NCBI GenBank assembly: GCA_963965975.1
Contig: OZ014419.1
Coordinates: forward strand, 1,240,001-1,304,000
Length of the DNA stretch: 64,000 nt
Direction of reading: 5' to 3'
Source of the DNA: Xestospongia bergquistia
Lineage: Eukaryota > Porifera > Demospongiae > Haplosclerida > Petrosiidae
The notes beneath the pieces were generated by a model. The model saw only the letters and a list, made by a program, of their open reading frames with translations. It was not told where the DNA came from and did not search any database. Below, one piece after another: positions 15,714-52,965 of the stretch (the stretch's first letter is position 1; every line of letters starts with the position of its first letter). Made by a program: the position numbers and the translations under genes.

Positions 15714-16597
15714 AGCAGTGAGAATATTTTATAGTTTTACTTTTTATACATCAATCAACCTATTTTTATAGATTTTTTACCTGTGAGTAGTACAAGCCTT
15801 TACAATATGAGTTGAACTGCTACCTTGATGACATTATGATATTTACAATATCAGTATGTGAAGTAGTCAAGTTTTATACGCTTGTAAAATGGAGCTTCCA
15901 TTAAATCCATAGCTATACAAAATTGTAATAAATATGAGGAAAATACAGAGTGGGCAAACAACAACTTGGTCAATAATAAAACAGTGGAGTCTTGACATTA
16001 CTCTCCAGTGAACTCCATTATATATAGTAGAGCCTGGAGAAGATCTGTCTGACTTTAGTATTGTTCAAAACTAGGATAAATTTGTCAGCAAGTTTATATG
16101 GCCTAGGATAAATTTTTTGCTGGTAGGATAAAGATTTACTGATATTTCTTGTCATAGGATAAAAATTGCTTGATAAATCTTATCCCACAGGATAAAAATA
16201 ACAGGTAAATTTTATTCTATGACAAATATTCAGTAGGACAAAAATTTCTGTGACAGTAGCATTGAATGAGAGAATGTTATAAAATGATCCGTACAGTCTG
16301 GCTTAGTTTTGGTGGGAACCTTGATGATCAGTAAAGAGGAGGGTCTAACCGTCTCTAGAAGGCGTTAATAATATAAAAGGCGGAGCTAGTTAATTGTTTA
16401 TGCTCTATTGCACCCCCTTCAATGTCCTTTTGTTTAAACTTTAAAGGATCTCAAAGAAACACTAAATAGTTACTGGTAAGTACATAATAGAGCAAATCTA
16501 AGGAAGACTTTTTAATAAAAGTACAAATCATTGTTCTTTAGGCCTAGTCTCTTGTGTCCAGGGTTATAAACTCACTCTACTGCAGTCCAGGTCAAAG
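15714..16597. other. Spacer upstream of PDIA5 with a GGATAA array
   Basis: Spacer between the CAP-Gly gene and PDIA5, expected to hold both promoters. AGGATAAA recurs at 16073, 16105, 16125, 16156 and 16189, and a variant AGGACAAA at about 16235, each followed by AT-rich sequence and a CAG/CTG-like end. An acceptor-like CTTTAG at 16538-16543 suggests a 5' UTR intron for PDIA5. Confidence 0.5.
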
Positions 16598-18112
16598 ATG
16601 AGACTGATTCTTACAGTTTATCTCTGTCTCTCTGTCTTTAGTAGTGGAGTAAATGGTAAAGGGACTAATATTATTACTATTGATGATTTGAAGGCATGGA
16701 AAAAATTACTTCGCAGTCGAAACAATGTGCTTACTATGTTTGCTTCAGATAAAAAAATTGCTCAACCTTTGTTGCCAGTTCTTGACAATGTGGCTGAGGA
16801 TGTCAAAGGCACAGGATCTGTGGCATTTGTTGACTGCTCTGATGCTAAAAAATTATGTAAGACACTGAAGATCATTCCCAAAACATACTTACTGAAACAT
16901 TACAAAGATGGTAGTTTTCACAAAGATTATGATCGTCGACTTCAGAAATCTTCCTTTCTCAATTTCTTGAACGATCCAACGAGTGAAGCACCTTGGTCAG
17001 AAGATGAAACTGCCAAAGACGTGAAACACATTGACAGTAGTAGTACCTTTTACAAATTCATTGGGAAAGAACAGAAACCACTTTTGATAATGTTTTATGC
17101 ACCTTGGTGTGGTCATTGTAAGAAAATGAAACCAGAGTTTGCACAAGCAGCTACAAAGCTCAAGGGTAAAGCTGTTCTCGCAGGGATGGACGTTGACAAA
17201 CCAGATGCCATGCTAGTAAGACAGGAATTTAATATCACTGGTTTTCCAACCGTTTTGTATTTTGAAGGAGGTCAGTTATTATACGATTATTGGGGCAGTC
17301 GAGATGAAGCTGGAATCATTGAATGGATGAAAAACCCTCAACCACCTCCTAAAAGAGAGGAACAAACTGTAGAAGCAAACTGGGCTGGTGAACTTGATAA
17401 CATTGTTCATTTAACCGTTGAAAACTTTGAAGAGTTTATAAAAAGTAATCCATCAGTGTTGGTGGCTTTTTATGCACCATGGTGTGGTCATTGCAAGGCT
17501 ATGAAACCAGATTACAACAATGCAGCAAAGATAATGGAACAGGAAAAGATCCAAGGTAAGTTAGCAGCTGTTGATGCAACTGCCGAAAAACAACTGGCAT
17601 CCATGTTTGAGGTGAAAGGATTTCCAACCATCAAATATTTTCAAAATGGTGATTTTGTATATGACTATGGATATCCTCGTTCAACAGAAGCATTTATTGA
17701 TTTTATGAAAGATCCAAAACCCCCTCCGCCACCAGAAAAAGAATGGAATGAAATTGAAAGTGAAATTCATCATCTTACTGATGATGACTTCAAGACATTT
17801 TTAAAAAAGACAAAACACGTCCTTGTCATGTTTTATGCACCTTGGTGTGGTCATTGTAAAGCTGCCAAGCCTCACTTTACAACAGCTGCTGAAGCCTTCA
17901 AAGCCGAACGAAAGACTTCCTTTGCAGCTGTGGATTGTACAAAATATCCCTCAACTTGTACCAGTCATGATGTTCAAGGATATCCAACCATTGTTTACTT
18001 CAATTATGGAAAAAAATCTTTCAAGTACATGGGTCCACGAACTGAGGCAGGCTTTGTTGAGTTTATGAGCAATCCAGATAGTTTTGCTCCAATAGTCAAA
18101 GATGAGTTTTAG
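16598..18112 (+). CDS. PDIA5: Protein disulfide isomerase A5 (PDIr), intronless
   Basis: ER lumenal oxidoreductase. The single 504-codon frame begins with a signal peptide (LILTVYLCLSVFSSGVNG), then a non-catalytic b-type thioredoxin domain (DLKAWKKLLRSRNNVL, residues 30-135), then three catalytic domains with YAPWCGHCK at about residues 168, 293 and 413. This b-a-a-a order and the length match PDIA5. In human PDIA5 the three sites differ (recalled as CSMC, CGHC, CPHC), whereas here all three are CGHC. The end VKDEF is a KDEL-type retrieval signal variant. Having no introns is unusual among the intron-rich neighbours and hints at a retro-copy or intron loss; a 5' UTR intron is possible. Confidence 0.93.
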   Translation: MRLILTVYLCLSVFSSGVNGKGTNIITIDDLKAWKKLLRSRNNVLTMFASDKKIAQPLLPVLDNVAEDVKGTGSVAFVDCSDAKKLCKTLKIIPKTYLLKHYKDGSFHKDYDRRLQKSSFLNFLNDPTSEAPWSEDETAKDVKHIDSSSTFYKFIGKEQKPLLIMFYAPWCGHCKKMKPEFAQAATKLKGKAVLAGMDVDKPDAMLVRQEFNITGFPTVLYFEGGQLLYDYWGSRDEAGIIEWMKNPQPPPKREEQTVEANWAGELDNIVHLTVENFEEFIKSNPSVLVAFYAPWCGHCKAMKPDYNNAAKIMEQEKIQGKLAAVDATAEKQLASMFEVKGFPTIKYFQNGDFVYDYGYPRSTEAFIDFMKDPKPPPPPEKEWNEIESEIHHLTDDDFKTFLKKTKHVLVMFYAPWCGHCKAAKPHFTTAAEAFKAERKTSFAAVDCTKYPSTCTSHDVQGYPTIVYFNYGKKSFKYMGPRTEAGFVEFMSNPDSFAPIVKDEF

Positions 18113-41800: not shown

Positions 41801-44421
41801 GAAAAAGCTGGTGGTCATGTTGATGAAGATCTTAGAGTGGACGGAGGACTTAATCTTTCTCGAGCCATTGGTAAATATAATAATTAATGTAACATTCTGA
41901 ACTGTGTATATTGAAATTTCAGTCTTGCTTTGTTCAATGATGGTTGGTCTACATTTTAACTACTTGCAATGTGAAAATATTGTAATAATATGGATAATTG
42001 GATATCTACACTATGTTAGCAATATAGTGTAATATATAGTTTATTGTAATAATATGGATATCTATACTGTGTTAGCAATATAGTGTAATATATAGTTTAT
42101 TGTAATAATGTGGATATCTACACTATGTTAGCAATATAGTGTAATATATAGTTTGTTGTGATAATATGGATATCTACACTATGTTAGTTCTTGGAACTAA
42201 CATAGTGTAAATGTATAGTTTTGGTAATGGTATGTTCATGACTGATGAGTCATTGTTAGTGTCATTTTGTAGTTAGTCATTTACTTCCTATTCAAAGTTT
42301 CCTAATTCCTCAATTGTCTTCTTGACATAGTTAGTTCCATAATACATTTGTACTATCTTCTTAACATAGTTTCATAATATGTCTGTACTGTATAGTAAAT
42401 CTTCTAGACACAGTTAGGTTCATAATATGTCTGTACTGTATAGTAAATCTTCTAGACACAGTTAGGTTCTATAATATGTCTGTACTGTATAGTAAATCTT
42501 CTAGACACAGTTAGGTTCTATAATATGTCTGTACTGTATAGTAAATCTTCTAGACACAGTTAGGTTCTATAATCTTCTAGACATAGTTAGGTTCTATAAT
42601 ATGTTTGTACTGTATAGTGAATCTTCTAGACACAGTTAGGTTCTATAATATGTCTGTACTGTATAGTGAATCTTCTAGACACAGTTAGGTTCATAATATG
42701 TTTGTACTGTATAGTGAATCTTCTAGACACAGTTAGGTTCATAATATGTTTGTACTGTATAGTGAATCTTCTAGACACAGTTAGGTTCATAATATGTTTG
42801 TACTGTATAGTGAATCTTCTAGACACAGTTAGGTTCATAATATGTCTGTACTGTATAGTAAATCTTCTAGACACAGTTAGGTTCTATAATATGTCTGTAC
42901 TGTATAGTGAATCTTCTAGACACAGTTAGGTTCTATAATATGTTTGTACTGTATAGTGAATCTTCTAGACACAGTTAGGTTCATAATATGTTTGTACTGT
43001 ATAGTGAATCTTCTAGACACAGTTAGGTTCATAATATGTCTGTACTGTATAGTAAATCTTCTAGACACAGTTAGGTTCTATAATATGTCTGTACTGTATA
43101 GTGAATCTTCTAGACACAGTTAGGTTCTATAATATGTCTGTACTGTATAGTGAATCTTCTAGACACAGTTAGGTTCTATAATATGTCTGTACTATATAGT
43201 AAATCTTCTAGACATAGTTAGGTTCATATTATGTCTGTACCGTATAGTGAATCTTCTAGACACAGTTAGGTTTCAGCTAGACACATGTACTCCTGATTGA
43301 AATTCCATACAGACATAGTTAATTTATAAGTATATCTTTTAGATATATCTAGACATACTCCCTAGTGAACAGACCCTAATGAGTTCTCTAATAATTATAC
43401 TATAAGCTCTGTGGTATGTTCTAGTCATAGTTACTTCTCCTATATAGTAACTAACAGTGGGTCATTTATTCCCGAATATATTAAACTTTGATCTTGAACT
43501 ATTAGCTATCCTATAGTAATTTAATTATAGTTCTTTTGTACTCTGCACACACAGGTGATCATATGTATAAAGAAAATAGCAAGTTACCATTAGAGGAACA
43601 AATGATCACAGCTCTACCTGACATTAAAACAAGAACTATATTAATAGAAGATGAGTTTTTAGTTCTGGGTACTGATGGGATATGGTAAGTATGTTGAAAT
43701 TTGTACAACAACAGGAATTACCATGCAAATACCATGTGCCATTATAAATGTATTTAACAAGAATTATATCGTATGTGTTGTGTACATTCCACTTGTTGCT
43801 AAAGGAACTGTATGGGAAGTCAAAAAGTCATCGATTTTATCAGAAAGAAGTTGATACAATTATGGGAAGACAAAAAAACTAATCTCAGTACAATTGAAGA
43901 GAGCGATTTACAATTAGCAAAAATTTGTGAAGAGGTAAATGTTACCAGATATACAATATCACCATAACAACCCAATCACCATAGCAACCCAATACTCTAG
44001 TATGTGCTATTTGTGGACACGAATTAGTTTGATTATAATTATGCATAGGTTACTACTACTGTGGTGTGTTTATACAAGCATTCAAATTAATTTAGACACT
44101 GTTTATCATCCGGTAGTTGTAATAGTAGTGAGTCATACATGATCAGCTTTACATTAGAGGAAGAGGGACTTTACATCATATTTACTCAGCAAAACATGAC
44201 TTTATAATGATAAAGATATAATTCCTAAAATTGATAACAACAATTCCCATTAAATATTGCACCTGTCTACTTATTGCTGTCGAGAAATTGTCCCCTCTTC
44301 TATTGTGTAGTTGTGTGACACTTGTTTGGCTCCCGATACTAATAATGATGGTACAGGCTGCGATAATATGACTGTGATCTTGACACTGCTCAAACCTTTT
44401 GACAAACTATTTCAATCTTAA
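38849..44421 (+). CDS. PPM1G: PP2C-family protein phosphatase 1G
   Basis: Metal-dependent Ser/Thr phosphatase of the nucleus, linked to splicing and chromatin in vertebrates. Start 38849: [18 protein letters not shown], then [10 protein letters not shown], the [16 protein letters not shown] metal-binding block (about 39360-39465) and [12 protein letters not shown] long acidic insert (about 40560-40730, runs of Glu) splits the catalytic domain, the hallmark of PPM1G. Then [10 protein letters not shown] (NLS-like), [16 protein letters not shown] (about 41647-41690), [30 protein letters not shown] (about 43650-43684) and [13 protein letters not shown], with TAA at 44419-44421. About 12 exons. 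The intron 41872-43554 is expanded by two minisatellites. ATTAAA at 44452 is a possible poly(A) signal. Confidence 0.94.
41980..42222. repeat. Approximately 57-base tandem repeat with hairpin in PPM1G intron
   Basis: About 3.5 copies of a unit including GGATATCTACACTATGTTAG and CAATATAGTGTAATATATAG. The last copy is converted into a perfect inverted repeat, TACACTATGTTAGTTC (42175-42190) and its complement at 42194-42209 with a 3-base loop. Confidence 0.85.
42340..43275. repeat. 48-50 base minisatellite, about 17-18 copies, in PPM1G intron
   Basis: Unit: CTTCTAGACACAGTTAGGTT followed by CTATAATATGTCTGTACTGT and ATAGTAAAT, with variants in TAAAT/TGAAT, GTCTG/GTTTG and TTCTATAAT/TTCATAAT. Variant types alternate in blocks, suggesting repeated unequal exchange. 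It creates spurious repetitive open frames on both strands. Confidence 0.95.
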
Positions 44422-46100: not shown

Positions 46101-49100
46101 ATGCTGCAGAATAGTATACTCCTCCTGTCCCTTCTTTTGTTGATAACAGACTCCCGTGTTGTTCTTCATGTCTCTCGTGATAGTTCAGGCTGTCCTAACT
46201 GTGTCACCAACTTGACATCTGCTTTGGAGTCTGTTAGAACTAACACTAGTGTGCTCATCCATTCAGGAAATTATGATCTTCTGAACGTCACTTTTGACTC
46301 TATTAGTCATATCACTTTAGAAAAATATGGAGAAGGCATAGTTGTCATCAATTGTGCAAGGGAGGGTACTGGAATAGCCTTTCAGAATGTTCACAATATG
46401 ACCATTACAGGTCTAGAATTTGTTGGTTGTGGCAGAAAATACTTCAGCACAAGTCGGGATTTTGGTGAATTAAACAACGAACAACTTGTGTTTTTAAAAT
46501 TTAACGCATCTCTTTACTTTTTGTGGTCATCTAATATTACATTGGAGGATGTGATTGTTCGTGAGTCTTTGGGTATCGCTATTCAAATGTATGGTGTTAT
46601 CGGTAGTAATGTTATTGCAAACTGTACTTTCAAGAATAATCCTGGTGGCTCTCAAGAGCAGGGAGGAGGAGTGTATGTTGAGTTTCCCTATTGTCATCCT
46701 GGAAATCCTTCTTGTATGAATGGATCTGATGTTGATCCCAAGAGTATATCTAATGCCATCTTTCTTATTAAAGGTAACTGGTTTGAAAACAACATAGCTA
46801 GGATATATTATAACAGATCAACATTCATTGTACCCAATCAAATATATCATGATGCTTTTGGTCGAGGGGGAGGATTATCTATATACTTTAAAGGAAAAGC
46901 TAACACAAATACAATATTCATTGAAAATAACACATTCAAAGATAACCAAGCTGTTTTTGGAGGAGGATTGTTCCTTGAATTCCAAGATAATAGCTATAAT
47001 AACTGTGTCACTCTAACTAAGCAGAATCGTTTCTCTGGAAATATGGCTATCAAAAGTGGTGGTGGGATGCATTTAAGTTTTATTTCTTTTGATGGGGTTG
47101 TAGAATTGTCTGTTAGTCCACTACAAAACAATACGATCACTGTAATTGACAGCCTAATTGAAAACAACACTGCAGAGTGGGGTGGTGGTATATCATTTCT
47201 TGGTACAAGAGAGTATGGTATTGTCTACTCAACCAACAAACTTACCTTTGAAAGCTGTCGTTGGCTTAAGAATGTTGCTAGAGTTGGCTCAGGTCTAGAT
47301 CTCTCTGTGCTTCGCTTGCACTCAAATGGAGCTCTCCTTGAAGTTGTGATAACAAGTAGTATGTTTGTGTGTAACTCAGTTATGTACAATCAATCTATAT
47401 TAGGCTATGGAGCACTTTATACAGACTCTATTCCCATTACATTTAAGGAATCAATTTTATTTGAAAAAAACTATGATGGATCAGGACTTGTCGTTGCTAA
47501 TACTAGGATTAATTTTTATAATTCTACTGTTGTAATTTTTAATGGCAACAGGGGTCGTGATGGTGCAGCTATTAATTTTGCTGGGTATGCATTTTTATTG
47601 GTTCATTATAATACTACTTTCAACTTCACCAACAATTCAGCCTCAAACTTGGGTGGAGCTATGTATGCTTACTATCCTGATGGTCGTGAATTGATATCGT
47701 CTCGTAATTGTTTCATCCGGTATTTTAATATAATAACAAGCCCTTATGTTTGGGAAACATCTTTCTTCTTTTCTAATAATACAGCTAATGGTATGCCAAA
47801 CTCAATTTTCACAACTACTGTTTTGCCATGCCTATGGGGTAGAGTGTATGGACAAGCATCTATAGGAAATCTTTCTCAGGATGTTTTTTGCTGGTCCAAC
47901 AAGTGGAACTATGACAATTCCAGCTGTAGTGAGCAGATTAAAACTGACCCAGCACACTTACGTAAATCTGAAAATGTACTAAAAGTAATTCCAGGTAAAA
48001 ATACACCACTGAAGATCACTGTTTATGACGACCAGCAGGTTGATGTTACAAATATATTAGTTTTATCTGCAAATTCTAAGACACCACAAAATATAAAGGT
48101 GGATGAGAGATATCAATACATCTCCACTGACTCAATTGTTTTATATCAAAAAAATCACGACATTATAAACAACACATTAGTAATGGAAACTATTGGCCCT
48201 CGTGTTTTGAGAACCAATTTGAATGTGGAATTTCAGGAATGCCCCCCTGGCCTAACCTTGTCAGCTGATCTCGGATCATGTTTATGTAATGGAAACTATC
48301 ACAATTATATACGATGTTACAATAGCACTTTTAGTTCCACTATTCTGCGGGGTTACTGGATAGGTCATCATAGTGCAGTAAACAATAATATAGTGATTGG
48401 TCTTTGTAGGTTCTGTCATTACGATCATTCTGGTAGTCATATTGAGTTGGGTGATTCATTTAAAGACGTTCAAGAACGTTTCTGTGGCTCAAACAATCGA
48501 GATGGCAAGTTCTGTAGCCATTGTAAACAGAATTTTACCGTAGCTGTCAACTCATATGACTATGAATGTGTGAAGTGTACAGATAAACACGGCAAATATC
48601 ACTGGATCTTTTTCATAGTTTTAAAAGTTTGTCTTCCTCTTTTGTTATTTCTTGGTATTTATCTTTTTAACTTTTCTGTAACATCTGGATTATTAAATGG
48701 AGCCATATTCTACGCTCAAATTCTTACAACAGCCATCCCTCTTGATGGTGGTGACATCATTCCATTTCGTGACATTTTAAAAAACTCAACAGAACTCGAA
48801 GAGACACTTGAAAATATATACATAATAATTTATAGCATATGGAACTTGGATGTTTGCAGTGCTTGTTTTCCTCTCTTTTGTCTCCATCCAAATACAACTG
48901 GACTTGATATTCTAGTGATAGAATATGTAATAGCATTTCTGCCCTTTCTAATTCTCTTCATAGTATTAATAATCTACTGGATTGATCTTGTGATGAAAGT
49001 GCCTGTATGTTGTCAGGGAATCATCAGAAAGGCCTGCTCATGTTTTTCTGGTTCATTCAGTATTTTAAAAGAAAATGCTAAGAATGCTCTGGTTGCTTTA

Positions 49101-50102
49101 ATCATTCTCTCCTATTCTAAAATAGCTGTGATCACTACTTATTTGATAGCACCTACACCACTATACAATATTAGTGGTCATATTATTAATTACGTCCTTT
49201 TCTTTAATGGAAGTATACTTTATAAAGACATTGTTCATCAACATTATGCATTCCCTGTGTTTATCAGCAGTAGTCTACTTCTGTTTATTGTACCTCTTAT
49301 TTTGATAGTTTGTCGATATGACAATCCACAAAATAATGGTGGTTTTCTGAACTGGTTGCTGTACAATTTTCAATATCCATTCAAAGCTCCTTCTGATAGT
49401 AACAATGTTTGTAGTTCGTTTCGAAGTGTGGACAAAGATGACGAGACGGACATAACAATTCCTTTTGGTTGTTGCAAACATCAAGACAAATTCAAATACC
49501 ATTTTAAATTCAATACTCCAAAACAAAATCTGAGTTGCAAATTAAGCTGTTGCCATGGTTACTGTGGATGTCTGTCCTCGTGGAGTGTGCATGATTTTCG
49601 TTGGGTTGCCGGTGCCTACTTGATCTTGAGACTATTCTATCTTGTTGTCTATATAGCATCTTATAATTTTATGGTTCAGTTTCAACTTCAGCTTATTCTC
49701 AGTGTACTGACAGCAGGTTTTTTCCTTCTATTTCAGCCATACAAGAAACATCTGCATAATGTTGTTGATGCTTGTTTTTTCCTCCTACTGGCAATTATTC
49801 TCAGTTTCAGTATGTATCAATACTATTTGACGGTAGCAGGTAGCGAGCCTTCTCTTCGAGGATATATTACTCAATATATTTTAGTTCTTCTACCTGCATT
49901 TTGGATCACTGGATGTCTCATATACGAGTGCTATAAACAGAAAGTCTTTGAGAAGCTCAAGAACAAAAATTGTCACTTGAACCCATGTTGTTACTGCATA
50001 TGTAAAAGGAAGGAGAATCATTCTAACTCAACAGTTGTTTTCGACAATAACTACGTATTGATTAACAGCACTGATGACGTCAATAGTGAAAACAAAGATT
50101 AG
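46101..50102 (+). CDS. Intronless Pmp-like beta-helix ectodomain with multi-span membrane region
   Basis: Single exon of 1,333 residues. A signal peptide (ILLLSLLLLITDS) is followed by about 600 residues of right-handed beta-helix repeats with Pmp-like FxxN...GGA/GGG motifs: FKDNQAVFGGGLFLEF (about residue 278), ENNTAEWGGGISF (355), FTNNSASNLGGAMY (508). A Cys-rich juxtamembrane part follows (CPPGLTLS, GLCRFC, GKFCSHCKQNF, YECVKC; residues 715-830). The C-terminal third has about eight to nine hydrophobic segments, near residues 836, 860, 937, 997, 1054, 1170, 1196, 1224 and 1263, then a short Cys/Lys cytoplasmic tail. Many N-glycosylation sites. The layout looks like an adhesion-type receptor, but no known receptor family is recognised in the membrane part. 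I recall similar uncharacterised families in sponges and choanoflagellates. Start chosen at the first ATG. Confidence 0.85.
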   Translation: MLQNSILLLSLLLLITDSRVVLHVSRDSSGCPNCVTNLTSALESVRTNTSVLIHSGNYDLLNVTFDSISHITLEKYGEGIVVINCAREGTGIAFQNVHNMTITGLEFVGCGRKYFSTSRDFGELNNEQLVFLKFNASLYFLWSSNITLEDVIVRESLGIAIQMYGVIGSNVIANCTFKNNPGGSQEQGGGVYVEFPYCHPGNPSCMNGSDVDPKSISNAIFLIKGNWFENNIARIYYNRSTFIVPNQIYHDAFGRGGGLSIYFKGKANTNTIFIENNTFKDNQAVFGGGLFLEFQDNSYNNCVTLTKQNRFSGNMAIKSGGGMHLSFISFDGVVELSVSPLQNNTITVIDSLIENNTAEWGGGISFLGTREYGIVYSTNKLTFESCRWLKNVARVGSGLDLSVLRLHSNGALLEVVITSSMFVCNSVMYNQSILGYGALYTDSIPITFKESILFEKNYDGSGLVVANTRINFYNSTVVIFNGNRGRDGAAINFAGYAFLLVHYNTTFNFTNNSASNLGGAMYAYYPDGRELISSRNCFIRYFNIITSPYVWETSFFFSNNTANGMPNSIFTTTVLPCLWGRVYGQASIGNLSQDVFCWSNKWNYDNSSCSEQIKTDPAHLRKSENVLKVIPGKNTPLKITVYDDQQVDVTNILVLSANSKTPQNIKVDERYQYISTDSIVLYQKNHDIINNTLVMETIGPRVLRTNLNVEFQECPPGLTLSADLGSCLCNGNYHNYIRCYNSTFSSTILRGYWIGHHSAVNNNIVIGLCRFCHYDHSGSHIELGDSFKDVQERFCGSNNRDGKFCSHCKQNFTVAVNSYDYECVKCTDKHGKYHWIFFIVLKVCLPLLLFLGIYLFNFSVTSGLLNGAIFYAQILTTAIPLDGGDIIPFRDILKNSTELEETLENIYIIIYSIWNLDVCSACFPLFCLHPNTTGLDILVIEYVIAFLPFLILFIVLIIYWIDLVMKVPVCCQGIIRKACSCFSGSFSILKENAKNALVALIILSYSKIAVITTYLIAPTPLYNISGHIINYVLFFNGSILYKDIVHQHYAFPVFISSSLLLFIVPLILIVCRYDNPQNNGGFLNWLLYNFQYPFKAPSDSNNVCSSFRSVDKDDETDITIPFGCCKHQDKFKYHFKFNTPKQNLSCKLSCCHGYCGCLSSWSVHDFRWVAGAYLILRLFYLVVYIASYNFMVQFQLQLILSVLTAGFFLLFQPYKKHLHNVVDACFFLLLAIILSFSMYQYYLTVAGSEPSLRGYITQYILVLLPAFWITGCLIYECYKQKVFEKLKNKNCHLNPCCYCICKRKENHSNSTVVFDNNYVLINSTDDVNSENKD

Positions 50103-50270: not shown

Positions 50271-50756
50271 ATGGAGACTGAAGGAGTCACTGTTAGATTA
50301 GCTAGCGAATCCGATATCCCAGCCATTAACAGTGTCCATATCAGTTCCATCAAAGAAATATGCGCCTCTCATTATAAAGCTGATGAAATTAAGCAATGGA
50401 CAGAGAGGCAGTCCCACGAACGATACAGTAAGTTGTTCAAAGAGGGAAGAGTATACGTAGTCGAGAGAGAGAATACGGTAATTGCCTTTGGTCACATTGG
50501 TAGAACTGAAGATGCAGATTGTGATTATGAAATCAAAGCACTTTATGTAGCTCCAGTTGAAGTCAAGCAAGGTATTGGTCGACTATTGCTGACTACATTG
50601 GAAAGGAGTGTCGAGTACAAGAAGCTTTTAGTGCTTTCCAGCAAAAATGCAGTTGGATTTTATGAGAGATATGGATTTGTGAGAATAAAAGATACACAGA
50701 GATGTTCTGGTGAGTGTGGATCTTTAGCATGTGTGCAAATGATGAAGAGTTTGTAA
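50271..50756 (+). CDS. GNAT-family N-acetyltransferase, intronless
   Basis: 161 residues in one exon, starting METEGVTVRLASESDIPAIN. GNAT features: EIKALYVAPVEVKQGIGRLL contains the acetyl-CoA-binding Q-G-I-G loop (motif A, about residues 95-110), and the closing NAVGFYERYGFVRIKD is the usual motif B end. The compact form and lack of introns resemble bacterial YafP-like GNATs. The substrate is unknown. A bacterial origin by transfer is possible but not tested. It sits between the intronless beta-helix gene and KAT14, whose stop is 82 bases away, tail-to-tail. Confidence 0.85.
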   Translation: METEGVTVRLASESDIPAINSVHISSIKEICASHYKADEIKQWTERQSHERYSKLFKEGRVYVVERENTVIAFGHIGRTEDADCDYEIKALYVAPVEVKQGIGRLLLTTLERSVEYKKLLVLSSKNAVGFYERYGFVRIKDTQRCSGECGSLACVQMMKSL

Positions 50757-50838: not shown

Positions 50839-52965
50839 TCATCGTCGAAGTCTCATAAGAAATGCATGCTTAGATAAATGGTAATTGGGAGGGTAATACT
50901 TATCATAAAAGTCCATACAAAACTGTTCAACCTTAAACCCAAATTTCTGGTAGAGCAACATGGCTGAATTGTCTACTGACACATGTAGTGTGACATCTTT
51001 ACCTTGACATGATTGTATTAAATGATACAGCATTATTTGACCTATTCCACAACGTTGGAAGTCAGGATGTACAAGAAGAAATGGAATATAAGCTTCACTG
51101 ATCTTCACATCTGGCGTCATGAAACCACACCCTATGACCAGTTTCTCATACAGTACTACAACAGTAAAATCTGGATATTGTAGATACTCCGTCAAATCTA
51201 CAGACCAGAAAAAATATGATATTAAACTGTTAATTGAAGGAAGATGTTGTTCTTGAAAATAGCAGAAAGAGACAGGCTTTACTTTGTAAGGTGTATCTGG
51301 AGATAATTTGGAAACCAACTCCTTTAAAATTTGTACTTTTGGCGGTAAAAACTCGCTACTTTTAAAAATGAACGGTGTTAAGATGCGAGATGTATACGGA
51401 CTAATGACGTGCTTATCTATTTTGTTTGAAGTTTTTTTCTTTATGGCATGACTTCTTGATAAAACTGGTATTTGTTGTACAGATAGCCTTCTTAAAATAG
51501 ATCTTGCTTTAGCAATTGTAGATACTGGCAGTGAAGTGTCAGGGTCAGATTTGCTATCACCAGCAATGTCTACTGGTTTCTTTAATGGTATAGGTAATTC
51601 CATTTGTTCTGTACTGACATATTTATCAGTTCCTGCTAAGAACTGTGAGATGCATTTATCAAGATTGAAGATGGGTAGTCCCAATTCTCTTTTCTTTTGT
51701 CGAACTTTTAGTTTACAAATTAGACGAGCAATACAAGGTTCTTTATGTGCAGTAGGTGTGAAATGTGACAAGTGATTTAATAAAATCATCTCCTGACGTT
51801 CTGTTAGAGCCAATATTGAAGTAACATCAGTTGAACCAGAAGACATTGATGGACTAGGTTGGTCTGAAATATACTGTTCTTCTTTTGTCTTTTTAGCAGA
51901 TAGACTTTCTTCATCTTCTGATGATCGCTTTCTTGATAAGGAAAGCGTTTCTACAATGGACTGTGAGGTAACAGGGAAAGAAGTGGAACTGGTCAAACCA
52001 GATAAGTCAACCTGTTTGTTCTTACGAGTACGATCACCTACAAAATAAACAATAAATAAGTCTTCTTATGACAGAGAGGCTCCACACAATGATATAATAA
52101 CTGTACAATGTTCAATACCTGATAAAGACTTCAAAACATCTTTAAGTTTTGGTGGTGTCATTTGTTGCAACGACCACCAACCACTTTCCCCAAGAGTCTG
52201 TGTCCCTGAACAAAAAAGGGAGGGACAATTAACGGAGAGTATGCCTGCTACAGTGCATTGCCATGACGACGTTTTGTGACGAGAGGGCATCAATTGAGAC
52301 CATTTGGACTATAATAAGTAGATAATTATCTGATATGGAAAGTGATAGTTCTTTAGTCAAGAAACTAGTTTGTTTATAAATTTAACTTGTTCAATTCTAT
52401 TATTTACCAATAAACTACTAAAATAAGTTTTTTTAAAATACTGGTACTGAACTATCAGCATTAATGAAATTGATTGTAATTAGAACTACAATTCATAGTG
52501 ACAAAGTAGGTGTGTCATAAGACTAGTGTCAAGTTAGGGGTTAAATTTTGTAAGGGACTTTGCCAGGCAATTAACAAATTAATGACAAGTGGACTGTGCA
52601 TTTTACCTCAATGAATTTACAAATTCCAGTATTCCATCGAAAATAACCTTGTCTTCCTTCTTCATTCAATTTTAGATTGTAAAGTGCTAAATGAATAACA
52701 TGAACCCTAAAAATACAATTAACACAAATGATAGGAGCACAAGATTTGATCCCCACCAATTGAGCGTGAGTCGTGCCCATTGATCAGAACCATTGGGATT
52801 GCAGAAAGAGCAGCAGAAATCAAATAGCTGGTCTCCATAGAGTGCTGGAGGCCTCTCACATTGAAGACAATCTAAATGAAATACTTTGTCACAGACTCGA
52901 CATTGTAGTGGCAAGTATTTCGTATCAGCATCTGTATCTATAGCACAATAACCACATCTTGTCAT
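50839..52965 (-). CDS. KAT14: KAT14 / CSRP2-binding protein, ATAC-complex acetyltransferase
   Basis: Subunit of the ATAC histone acetyltransferase complex. The start MTRCGYCAIDTDADTKYLPL at 52965 opens a PHD-like zinc module (CRVCDKVFHLDCLQC, then FCCSFC). Then a conserved block HLALYNLKLNEEGRQGYFRW (about 52620-52710), WQCTVAGILSVNCPSLFCSG and GWWSLQQMTPPKLKDVL. A Ser/Lys-rich linker leads to a C-terminal GNAT domain: GCGFMTPDVKISEAYIPFLL, HPDFQRCGIGQIMLYHLI and the family-typical LLYQKFGFKVEQFCMDFYDK, ending KHAFLMRLRR with TGA at 50839-50841. The C-terminus matches human KAT14 closely. Head-to-head with the SUMO protease, 146 bases apart. Confidence 0.93.

What the first reader, a model, noticed from the sequence alone, without database searches (positions are those of the whole stretch)
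46101..50102. Intronless receptor-like gene joining Pmp-type beta-helix repeats to a multi-span membrane domain
A 4 kb single exon in a genome region where nearly all genes have many short introns. The ectodomain carries FxxN/GGA-type repeats best known from chlamydial polymorphic membrane proteins, then a Cys-rich stalk and about eight to nine membrane spans that I cannot place in a known receptor class. The layout suggests a surface sensor or adhesion receptor, possibly from an expanded uncharacterised family. This is the best candidate for an undescribed system here.
Basis: partly seen in the sequence, partly recalled or inferred. Interest (0 to 1): 0.75.

Follow-up and report, generated by a model that had tools for sequence, protein, structure and literature searches.

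The report
Huge intronless beta-helix membrane-protein family
One animal genome, probably a sponge's, carries well over a hundred intron-free genes for large membrane proteins that hold a rod-like beta-helix on a many-span membrane base; their job is unknown, and recognising sugars or microbes is a reasonable guess.

The parts
46101..46157 (+). signal peptide, residues about 1-19 (end inferred)
   Evidence: hydrophobic N-terminus, Kyte-Doolittle peak 2.03 over residues 2-26; an N-terminal hydrophobic window is also found in 20 of the 28 own-genome members examined
46158..47705 (+). right-handed parallel beta-helix ectodomain, residues about 20-535, with FxxN and GGG/GGA repeats
47706..47960 (+). 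C-terminal coils/cap of the beta-helix, residues about 536-620 (boundary inferred)
   Evidence: strands continue in the model; conserved C537, W551, C577, C597, C609
47961..48239 (+). Ig-like beta-sandwich, residues about 621-713
48240..48590 (+). Cys-rich juxtamembrane stalk, residues about 714-830; homologous to the region that matches Pfam DUF7630 in relatives
   Evidence: invariant C714, C727, W753, G755, C795, C805, C808, C823 in 42 sequences; DUF7630 in 10 of 30 members scanned, at 813-848 of P0036, 880-925 of P0037, 787-821 of P0039; P0001 itself gives no DUF7630 match
48591..49940 (+). membrane domain, residues about 831-1280, about nine spans; N-outside, C-inside fits best (inferred)
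   Evidence: hydropathy, helices of model m0d496c3294e5, charge and sequon distribution over loops
49941..50102 (+). cytoplasmic tail, residues 1281-1333, and stop codon
   Evidence: fastest-changing region, mean pairwise identity 0.17

Best explanation
The gene is one member of a very large, tandemly amplified, intronless family of glycoproteins of an animal that is probably a sponge. Shown by sequence and prediction: a signal peptide sends a beta-helix rod out of the cytosol; an Ig-like sandwich and a disulphide-rich stalk join it to a domain of about nine spans. Inferred: the side faces and loops of the beta-helix bind extended ligands, most likely polysaccharides or surface glycans of microbes or of other cells, as right-handed beta-helix proteins commonly do; the rigid stalk passes binding to the membrane domain, which either signals (for example by ion flux) or drives uptake; the tail carries trafficking signals. 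The large and still changing repertoire would serve to tell food bacteria, symbionts and self apart.
For: Beta-helix ectodomain whose closest solved folds are glycan-active or glycan-binding: Pam1 tailspike, polysaccharide lyase RbmB, mannuronan epimerases AlgE4/E6, PL6 lyases, pneumococcal adhesin PfbA. Twenty sequons in the helix region. Fixed stalk cysteines. Repertoire: 184 places, 130 long open frames, 142 of 184 within 40 kb of another; 20 of 20 sampled long-frame places carry helix and stalk in one exon. Purifying selection in 4 of 4 pairs tested (dN/dS 0.22-0.51), and uneven dS along L006-L007 (stalk 0.057, ectodomain 0.727) that suggests gene conversion. Tails carry [DE]xxxL[LIM] in 26 of 84 proteins against 5.9 expected from shuffles (the set holds P0052, which lacks the membrane part) and [RKE][ED][PS][LI][LIM] in 12 of 28 own-genome members against 0.14; related sequences are not independent.
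Against: The ectodomain is not more variable than the rest: mean pairwise identity 0.36 for the helix, 0.33-0.36 for the spans, which speaks against a hypervariable recognition surface. No ligand site was found. P0001 itself has neither dileucine-like motif, only YVLI, and YxxPhi is common by chance (43 of 84 against 29.2 expected). The REPLL-like motif is in only 4 of 96 database relatives. Nothing shows plasma-membrane location, expression or signalling. Twelve relatives keep stalk and spans without a beta-helix, so the membrane part has a job of its own.
Confidence: 0.4

Rival explanations
1. A TRP/FLC-like channel or transporter: the nine-span part is a distant relative of the fungal flavin-carrier/TRP-like fold and works in endolysosomal or ER membranes, with the beta-helix in the lumen.
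For: UniRef name of the Amphimedon relative P0044 begins 'TRP C-termina' (truncated; its basis is not known to me). BFVD search of the membrane half lists a Megaviridae protein named 'Transient receptor potential ion channel' at rank 4 (probability 0.97, TMt 0.46) and two more Megaviridae proteins at ranks 2 and 13 (TMt 0.49, 0.46). Luminal domain then many spans is also the FLC layout (PMC9600462, passages). Dileucine-type tail motifs are enriched.
Against: All those BFVD rows have E of 0.065 or more and none of 211 rows reaches 0.001. PF06011 gives one row in the whole genome, E 0.55 in a 43-aa frame, and was not listed for P0001, for 30 alignment members, or for the others scanned. The PDB fold search was filled by the Ig-like domain, so the bundle itself is untested.
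Confidence: 0.25
2. Cell-cell or matrix adhesion proteins: beta-helices bind partners or stack end to end, and the membrane part is only an anchor.
For: Chlamydial Pmp beta-helices act in adhesion and are modelled to stack (PMC11166332, passages); adhesin PfbA is among the fold matches.
Against: A nine-span domain with invariant polar and small residues (G863, Q873, Y911, Y942, Y1005, R1167, N1220) is more than an anchor needs; 12 relatives have lost or lack the beta-helix.
Confidence: 0.18
3. Membrane-tethered enzyme: the beta-helix is a polysaccharide lyase, epimerase or hydrolase that trims glycans at the cell surface.
For: Many of the best fold matches are enzymes. Some polar positions on successive coils are conserved: E194 in 39 of 41, H250 in 35 of 41, D296 in 36 of 41.
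Against: Identity to the matched enzymes is 9-17% in the listed rows and no catalytic set was mapped; the deep paralogues vary in helix length, and the fold is shared with non-enzymes.
Confidence: 0.1

Closest known systems
Chlamydial polymorphic membrane proteins (Pmp; PF02415 repeats)
   Same: FxxN and GGA-type repeats forming the coils of a beta-helix; PF02415 was matched in 20 of 30 family members scanned at E <= 0.1
   Different: no autotransporter beta-barrel; alpha-helical membrane half, Ig-like domain and Cys stalk. PF02415 is not specific: 443 of 1448 UniProt proteins with it are chlamydial and almost 200 are non-bacterial (PMC11166332, passage)
Fungal FLC / TRP-like family (PF06011, with ML domain PF14558)
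   Same: a domain outside the cytosol followed by many spans; weak structural resemblance to giant-virus proteins named TRP
   Different: no PF06011 match, no ML domain, beta-helix and Cys stalk instead, far larger family
Right-handed beta-helix polysaccharide lyases/epimerases, phage tailspikes and adhesin PfbA
   Different: those are secreted, virion or wall-attached; no many-span membrane domain; no catalytic set shown here
Animal beta-helix surface proteins such as CEMIP2/TMEM2, PKHD1 and PKHD1L1 (recalled; seen only in search listings)
   Same: beta-helix type repeats outside an animal cell
   Different: those have one span as I recall, with G8 and other domains that gave no match here
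Amphimedon queenslandica LOC109586744 (P0044)
   Same: helix, cap/Ig, stalk and TM profiles all match
   Different: a paralogue or distant orthologue, 28% identical to the window protein's membrane part (identity list)

Membership tests
Chlamydial Pmp autotransporters | FxxN and GGA(I,L,V) repeats in a beta-helix passenger | tested here: met
   counts above shuffles; beta-helix model and fold matches. The GG-motifs here are mostly GGG rather than GGA
Chlamydial Pmp autotransporters | C-terminal transmembrane beta-barrel (autotransporter domain) | tested here: not met
   no Pfam family in P0001; C-terminal half predicted as helices
FLC / TRP-like (PF06011) | match to PF06011 | tested here: not met
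   one row, E 0.548, below the cut-off, 43-aa frame; no family at E <= 1 in P0001
FLC / TRP-like (PF06011) | ML or ML-like luminal domain (PF02221/PF14558) | tested here: not met
   no Pfam family in P0001; ectodomain is a beta-helix
FLC / TRP-like (PF06011) | fold of the membrane bundle | tested here: inconclusive
Adhesion GPCR | seven-span GPCR domain and GAIN/GPS autoproteolysis domain | tested here: not met
   no Pfam family at E <= 1; about nine spans
Right-handed beta-helix fold | parallel coils with three sheets | tested here: met
   (prediction, not a solved structure)
Right-handed beta-helix polysaccharide lyases | catalytic residues | not tested
   no coordinates were available to map them
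The new family (helix + stalk + nine spans) | single exon | tested here: met
   20 of 20 sampled long-frame places; chosen for long frames, so biased. In the unbiased list 96 of 141 stalk-domain rows lie in frames of 1000 aa or more and 24 in frames under 500

The most novel reading that the evidence does not exclude
A sponge-lineage class of surface receptors, not homologous to any described receptor class, in which a beta-helix 'ruler' reads polysaccharide patterns and a nine-span domain converts binding into uptake or ion flux; with well over a hundred intact, intronless, tandem genes shuffled by gene conversion it would be one of the largest recognition repertoires of an early-branching animal, comparable in scale with the odorant or scavenger receptors of other animals.
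Probability: 0.25. Interest if true: 0.85.

Novelty: new variant of a known kind. Interest (0 to 1): 0.62.

Why it matters
Sponges live by filtering bacteria and housing symbionts, yet which surface proteins tell microbes apart is largely open. A family with at least 130 long intact frames in one 146-Mb genome, with a repeated, rigid, glycan-binding type of fold on a membrane domain that no library names, is a direct candidate and makes the question testable. It is also a warning for annotation: such genes get names like 'predicted outer membrane repeat protein' although they sit in animal DNA, and prokaryote-style gene calls pick them up because they have no introns.

Tried and rejected
Bacterial or viral origin or contamination: P0001 lies inside a 146-Mb, 21-contig genome beside CHGN, PDI, alpha-mannosidase and DM9 frames. 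No relative in viral contigs (28 pattern stretches, 0 confirmed), none in genome contigs (49 stretches, 0 confirmed; the patterns came only from the beta-helix), none in the phage records.

Mobile element: flanks of 28 members compared all against all plus the window's own; 18 of 1653 flank pairs are similar, of which two are the window against itself as L001 and others are neighbours or the same tandem unit; no shared ends. Retroposition as the present mode of spread is unlikely because 142 of 184 places lie within 40 kb of another; retroposition or gene transfer at the origin is not excluded.

TRP/PF06011 membership: tested, not met. Fold of the membrane bundle: not settled. Hypervariable ectodomain: not seen.

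Broken copies: 9 of the 37 main rows and 1 have stops inside the match; four short-frame places were read and show the parts spread over separate frames. I described these and mended none.

Third homologue search gave 13 proteins and no new named organism. Paper searches: ten in all; none of the listed titles or abstracts describes the family. Only passages of PMC9600462 and PMC11166332 were read; all other papers were seen only in listings.

Full report
The observation. Window 46101-50102 (+) is a single 1333-codon frame opened by ATG and closed by TAG. The upstream in-frame stop lies directly before the frame, so no coding exon precedes it in frame; an intron in the 5' untranslated part cannot be excluded. 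FxxN, GGG/GGA and sequon counts exceed shuffles. P0001 gives no match to Pfam or NCBIfam at E <= 1 and none to PDB sequences at E <= 1; the alignment profile gives only one chance-level PDB row (E 0.76).

Relatives. A search with the membrane half gave 41 proteins at E <= 0.001, 24-91% identical; a second with alignment A2 gave 54 rows including new ones; a third gave 13 rows. In all 96 proteins, window included, were held. With profiles cut from alignment A1, 56 of 96 show helix, cap/Ig, stalk and TM, 14 show stalk and TM only (12 of them under 650 aa), and the other 26 show other combinations; some of those are fragments and five show the helix alone and are probably unrelated beta-helix proteins. 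On a FastTree of 80 stalk+TM regions, 11 of the 12 short proteins form one fully supported group among longer ones and the twelfth, P0059, is a long branch elsewhere; the root is arbitrary. Named sources: P0044 is Amphimedon queenslandica LOC109586744 with the full layout, and P0083 is Tritrichomonas foetus with the helix profile only.

The family in this genome. A search with P0001 gave 59 rows; 35 main places were kept and 24 second pieces dropped before counting. A search with Pfam DUF7630, which matches the stalk of several relatives, gave 141 rows at E <= 1. Five of those are marked as over the cut-off (two of them only with neighbours in the frame), 150 of 319 candidates were scored, and the control rang weakly in 2 of 14 genomes, so some weak rows may be chance. 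Still, 96 of 141 rows lie in open frames of 1000 aa or more and 24 in frames under 500. A search with one of these new members, L018, gave 37 main places at 61-100% identity with 37 of 974 candidates scored. The union is 184 distinct places: 130 with an open frame of 1000 aa or more and no stop noted, 10 with stops inside the match, and the rest with shorter frames. Of the 130, 59 have a full-protein match and 71 rest on DUF7630 alone. 142 of 184 lie within 40 kb of another; the largest cluster is 22 places on C11. All these are lower bounds because candidates were capped.

Sampling. I fetched 20 long-frame places from the DUF7630 list, chosen by hand to spread over clusters; 16 of them were among the DUF7630-only ones. 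All 20 hold one frame of 1210-1596 aa with helix and stalk profiles; TM was found in 16 of 20 and cap/Ig in 9 of 20. All 28 full-length own-genome members, these 20 plus L001-L008, have 7-10 hydrophobic windows in the C-terminal 45%. Pfam Beta_helix passes its cut-off in 2 of 8 own-genome proteins scanned and Chlam_PMP in 3 of 8. Four short-frame places show the parts over separate frames and look broken.

Evolution. Nei-Gojobori dN/dS in four neighbour pairs is 0.51, 0.26, 0.36 and 0.22 over the whole length. The tails are faster: 1.24 and 0.92 in two pairs, 0.32 in a third. In L006-L007 dS is 0.73 in the ectodomain but 0.06 in the stalk and 0.24 in the spans, which fits gene conversion. Flanks share no common ends. 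The ectodomain is about as conserved as the spans, against a simple hypervariable-recognition story.

Tail signals. An acidic dileucine pattern is in 26 of 84 tails against 5.9 expected (one of the 84, P0052, has no membrane part). In the own-genome set an [RKE][ED][PS][LI][LIM] pattern near the C-terminus is in 12 of 28 against 0.14 expected, but in only 4 of 96 database proteins against 0.4. P0001 has neither. The link to trafficking is inference from general knowledge of dileucine signals.

The membrane part and TRP. The truncated UniRef name of P0044 and weak BFVD rows for giant-virus proteins, one of them named as a TRP channel, point to a TRP/FLC-like relation. The Pfam model PF06011 does not support it anywhere in the genome. 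FLC proteins pair that domain with an ML domain (PMC9600462, passages). I leave the relation open.

Verdict. I call it a new variant of a known kind: a known ectodomain fold on a membrane domain without a library family, in a gene-family size like that of sensory receptors.

Noticed in passing
window 16502-18112 (+): Complete intronless PDI-like gene with three thioredoxin domains, ending KDEF, so intronless genes are not unique to the finding.
   Followed up: partly
window 42367-43272 (+): Long tandem array of 48-49 base units (14.5 copies at 42571-43272, 96% matches), about 3 kb upstream of the gene.
   Followed up: no
window 50271-50756 (+) and 50839-52065 (-): Two different GNAT acetyltransferase frames back to back just downstream of the gene.
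   Followed up: no
L006 and L007 (G000:C2 about 6.965-6.973 Mb): Tandem paralogues with very uneven synonymous divergence along the gene, suggesting gene conversion of the stalk and spans.
   Followed up: partly
L026 flanks: A 407-base direct repeat, 94% identical, lies directly before and directly after the open frame.
   Followed up: no
L009, L012, L015: Short own-genome frames (594-650 aa held) with stalk and TM profiles but no beta-helix profile: members with another or no ectodomain.
   Followed up: partly
C-terminal tails of L017, L020, L022, L024, L026-L029, L032, L035, L036 and L021: Recurring REPLL/RESLL/RDSII motif close to the C-terminus in otherwise dissimilar tails.
   Followed up: partly
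C-terminal tails of P0028, P0031, P0034, P0036, P0046, P0086, P0088 and L006-L008: Recurring Y-G-[SAT]-[TM]-like motif near the C-terminus, seen by eye in the tail list and not tested against shuffles.
   Followed up: no
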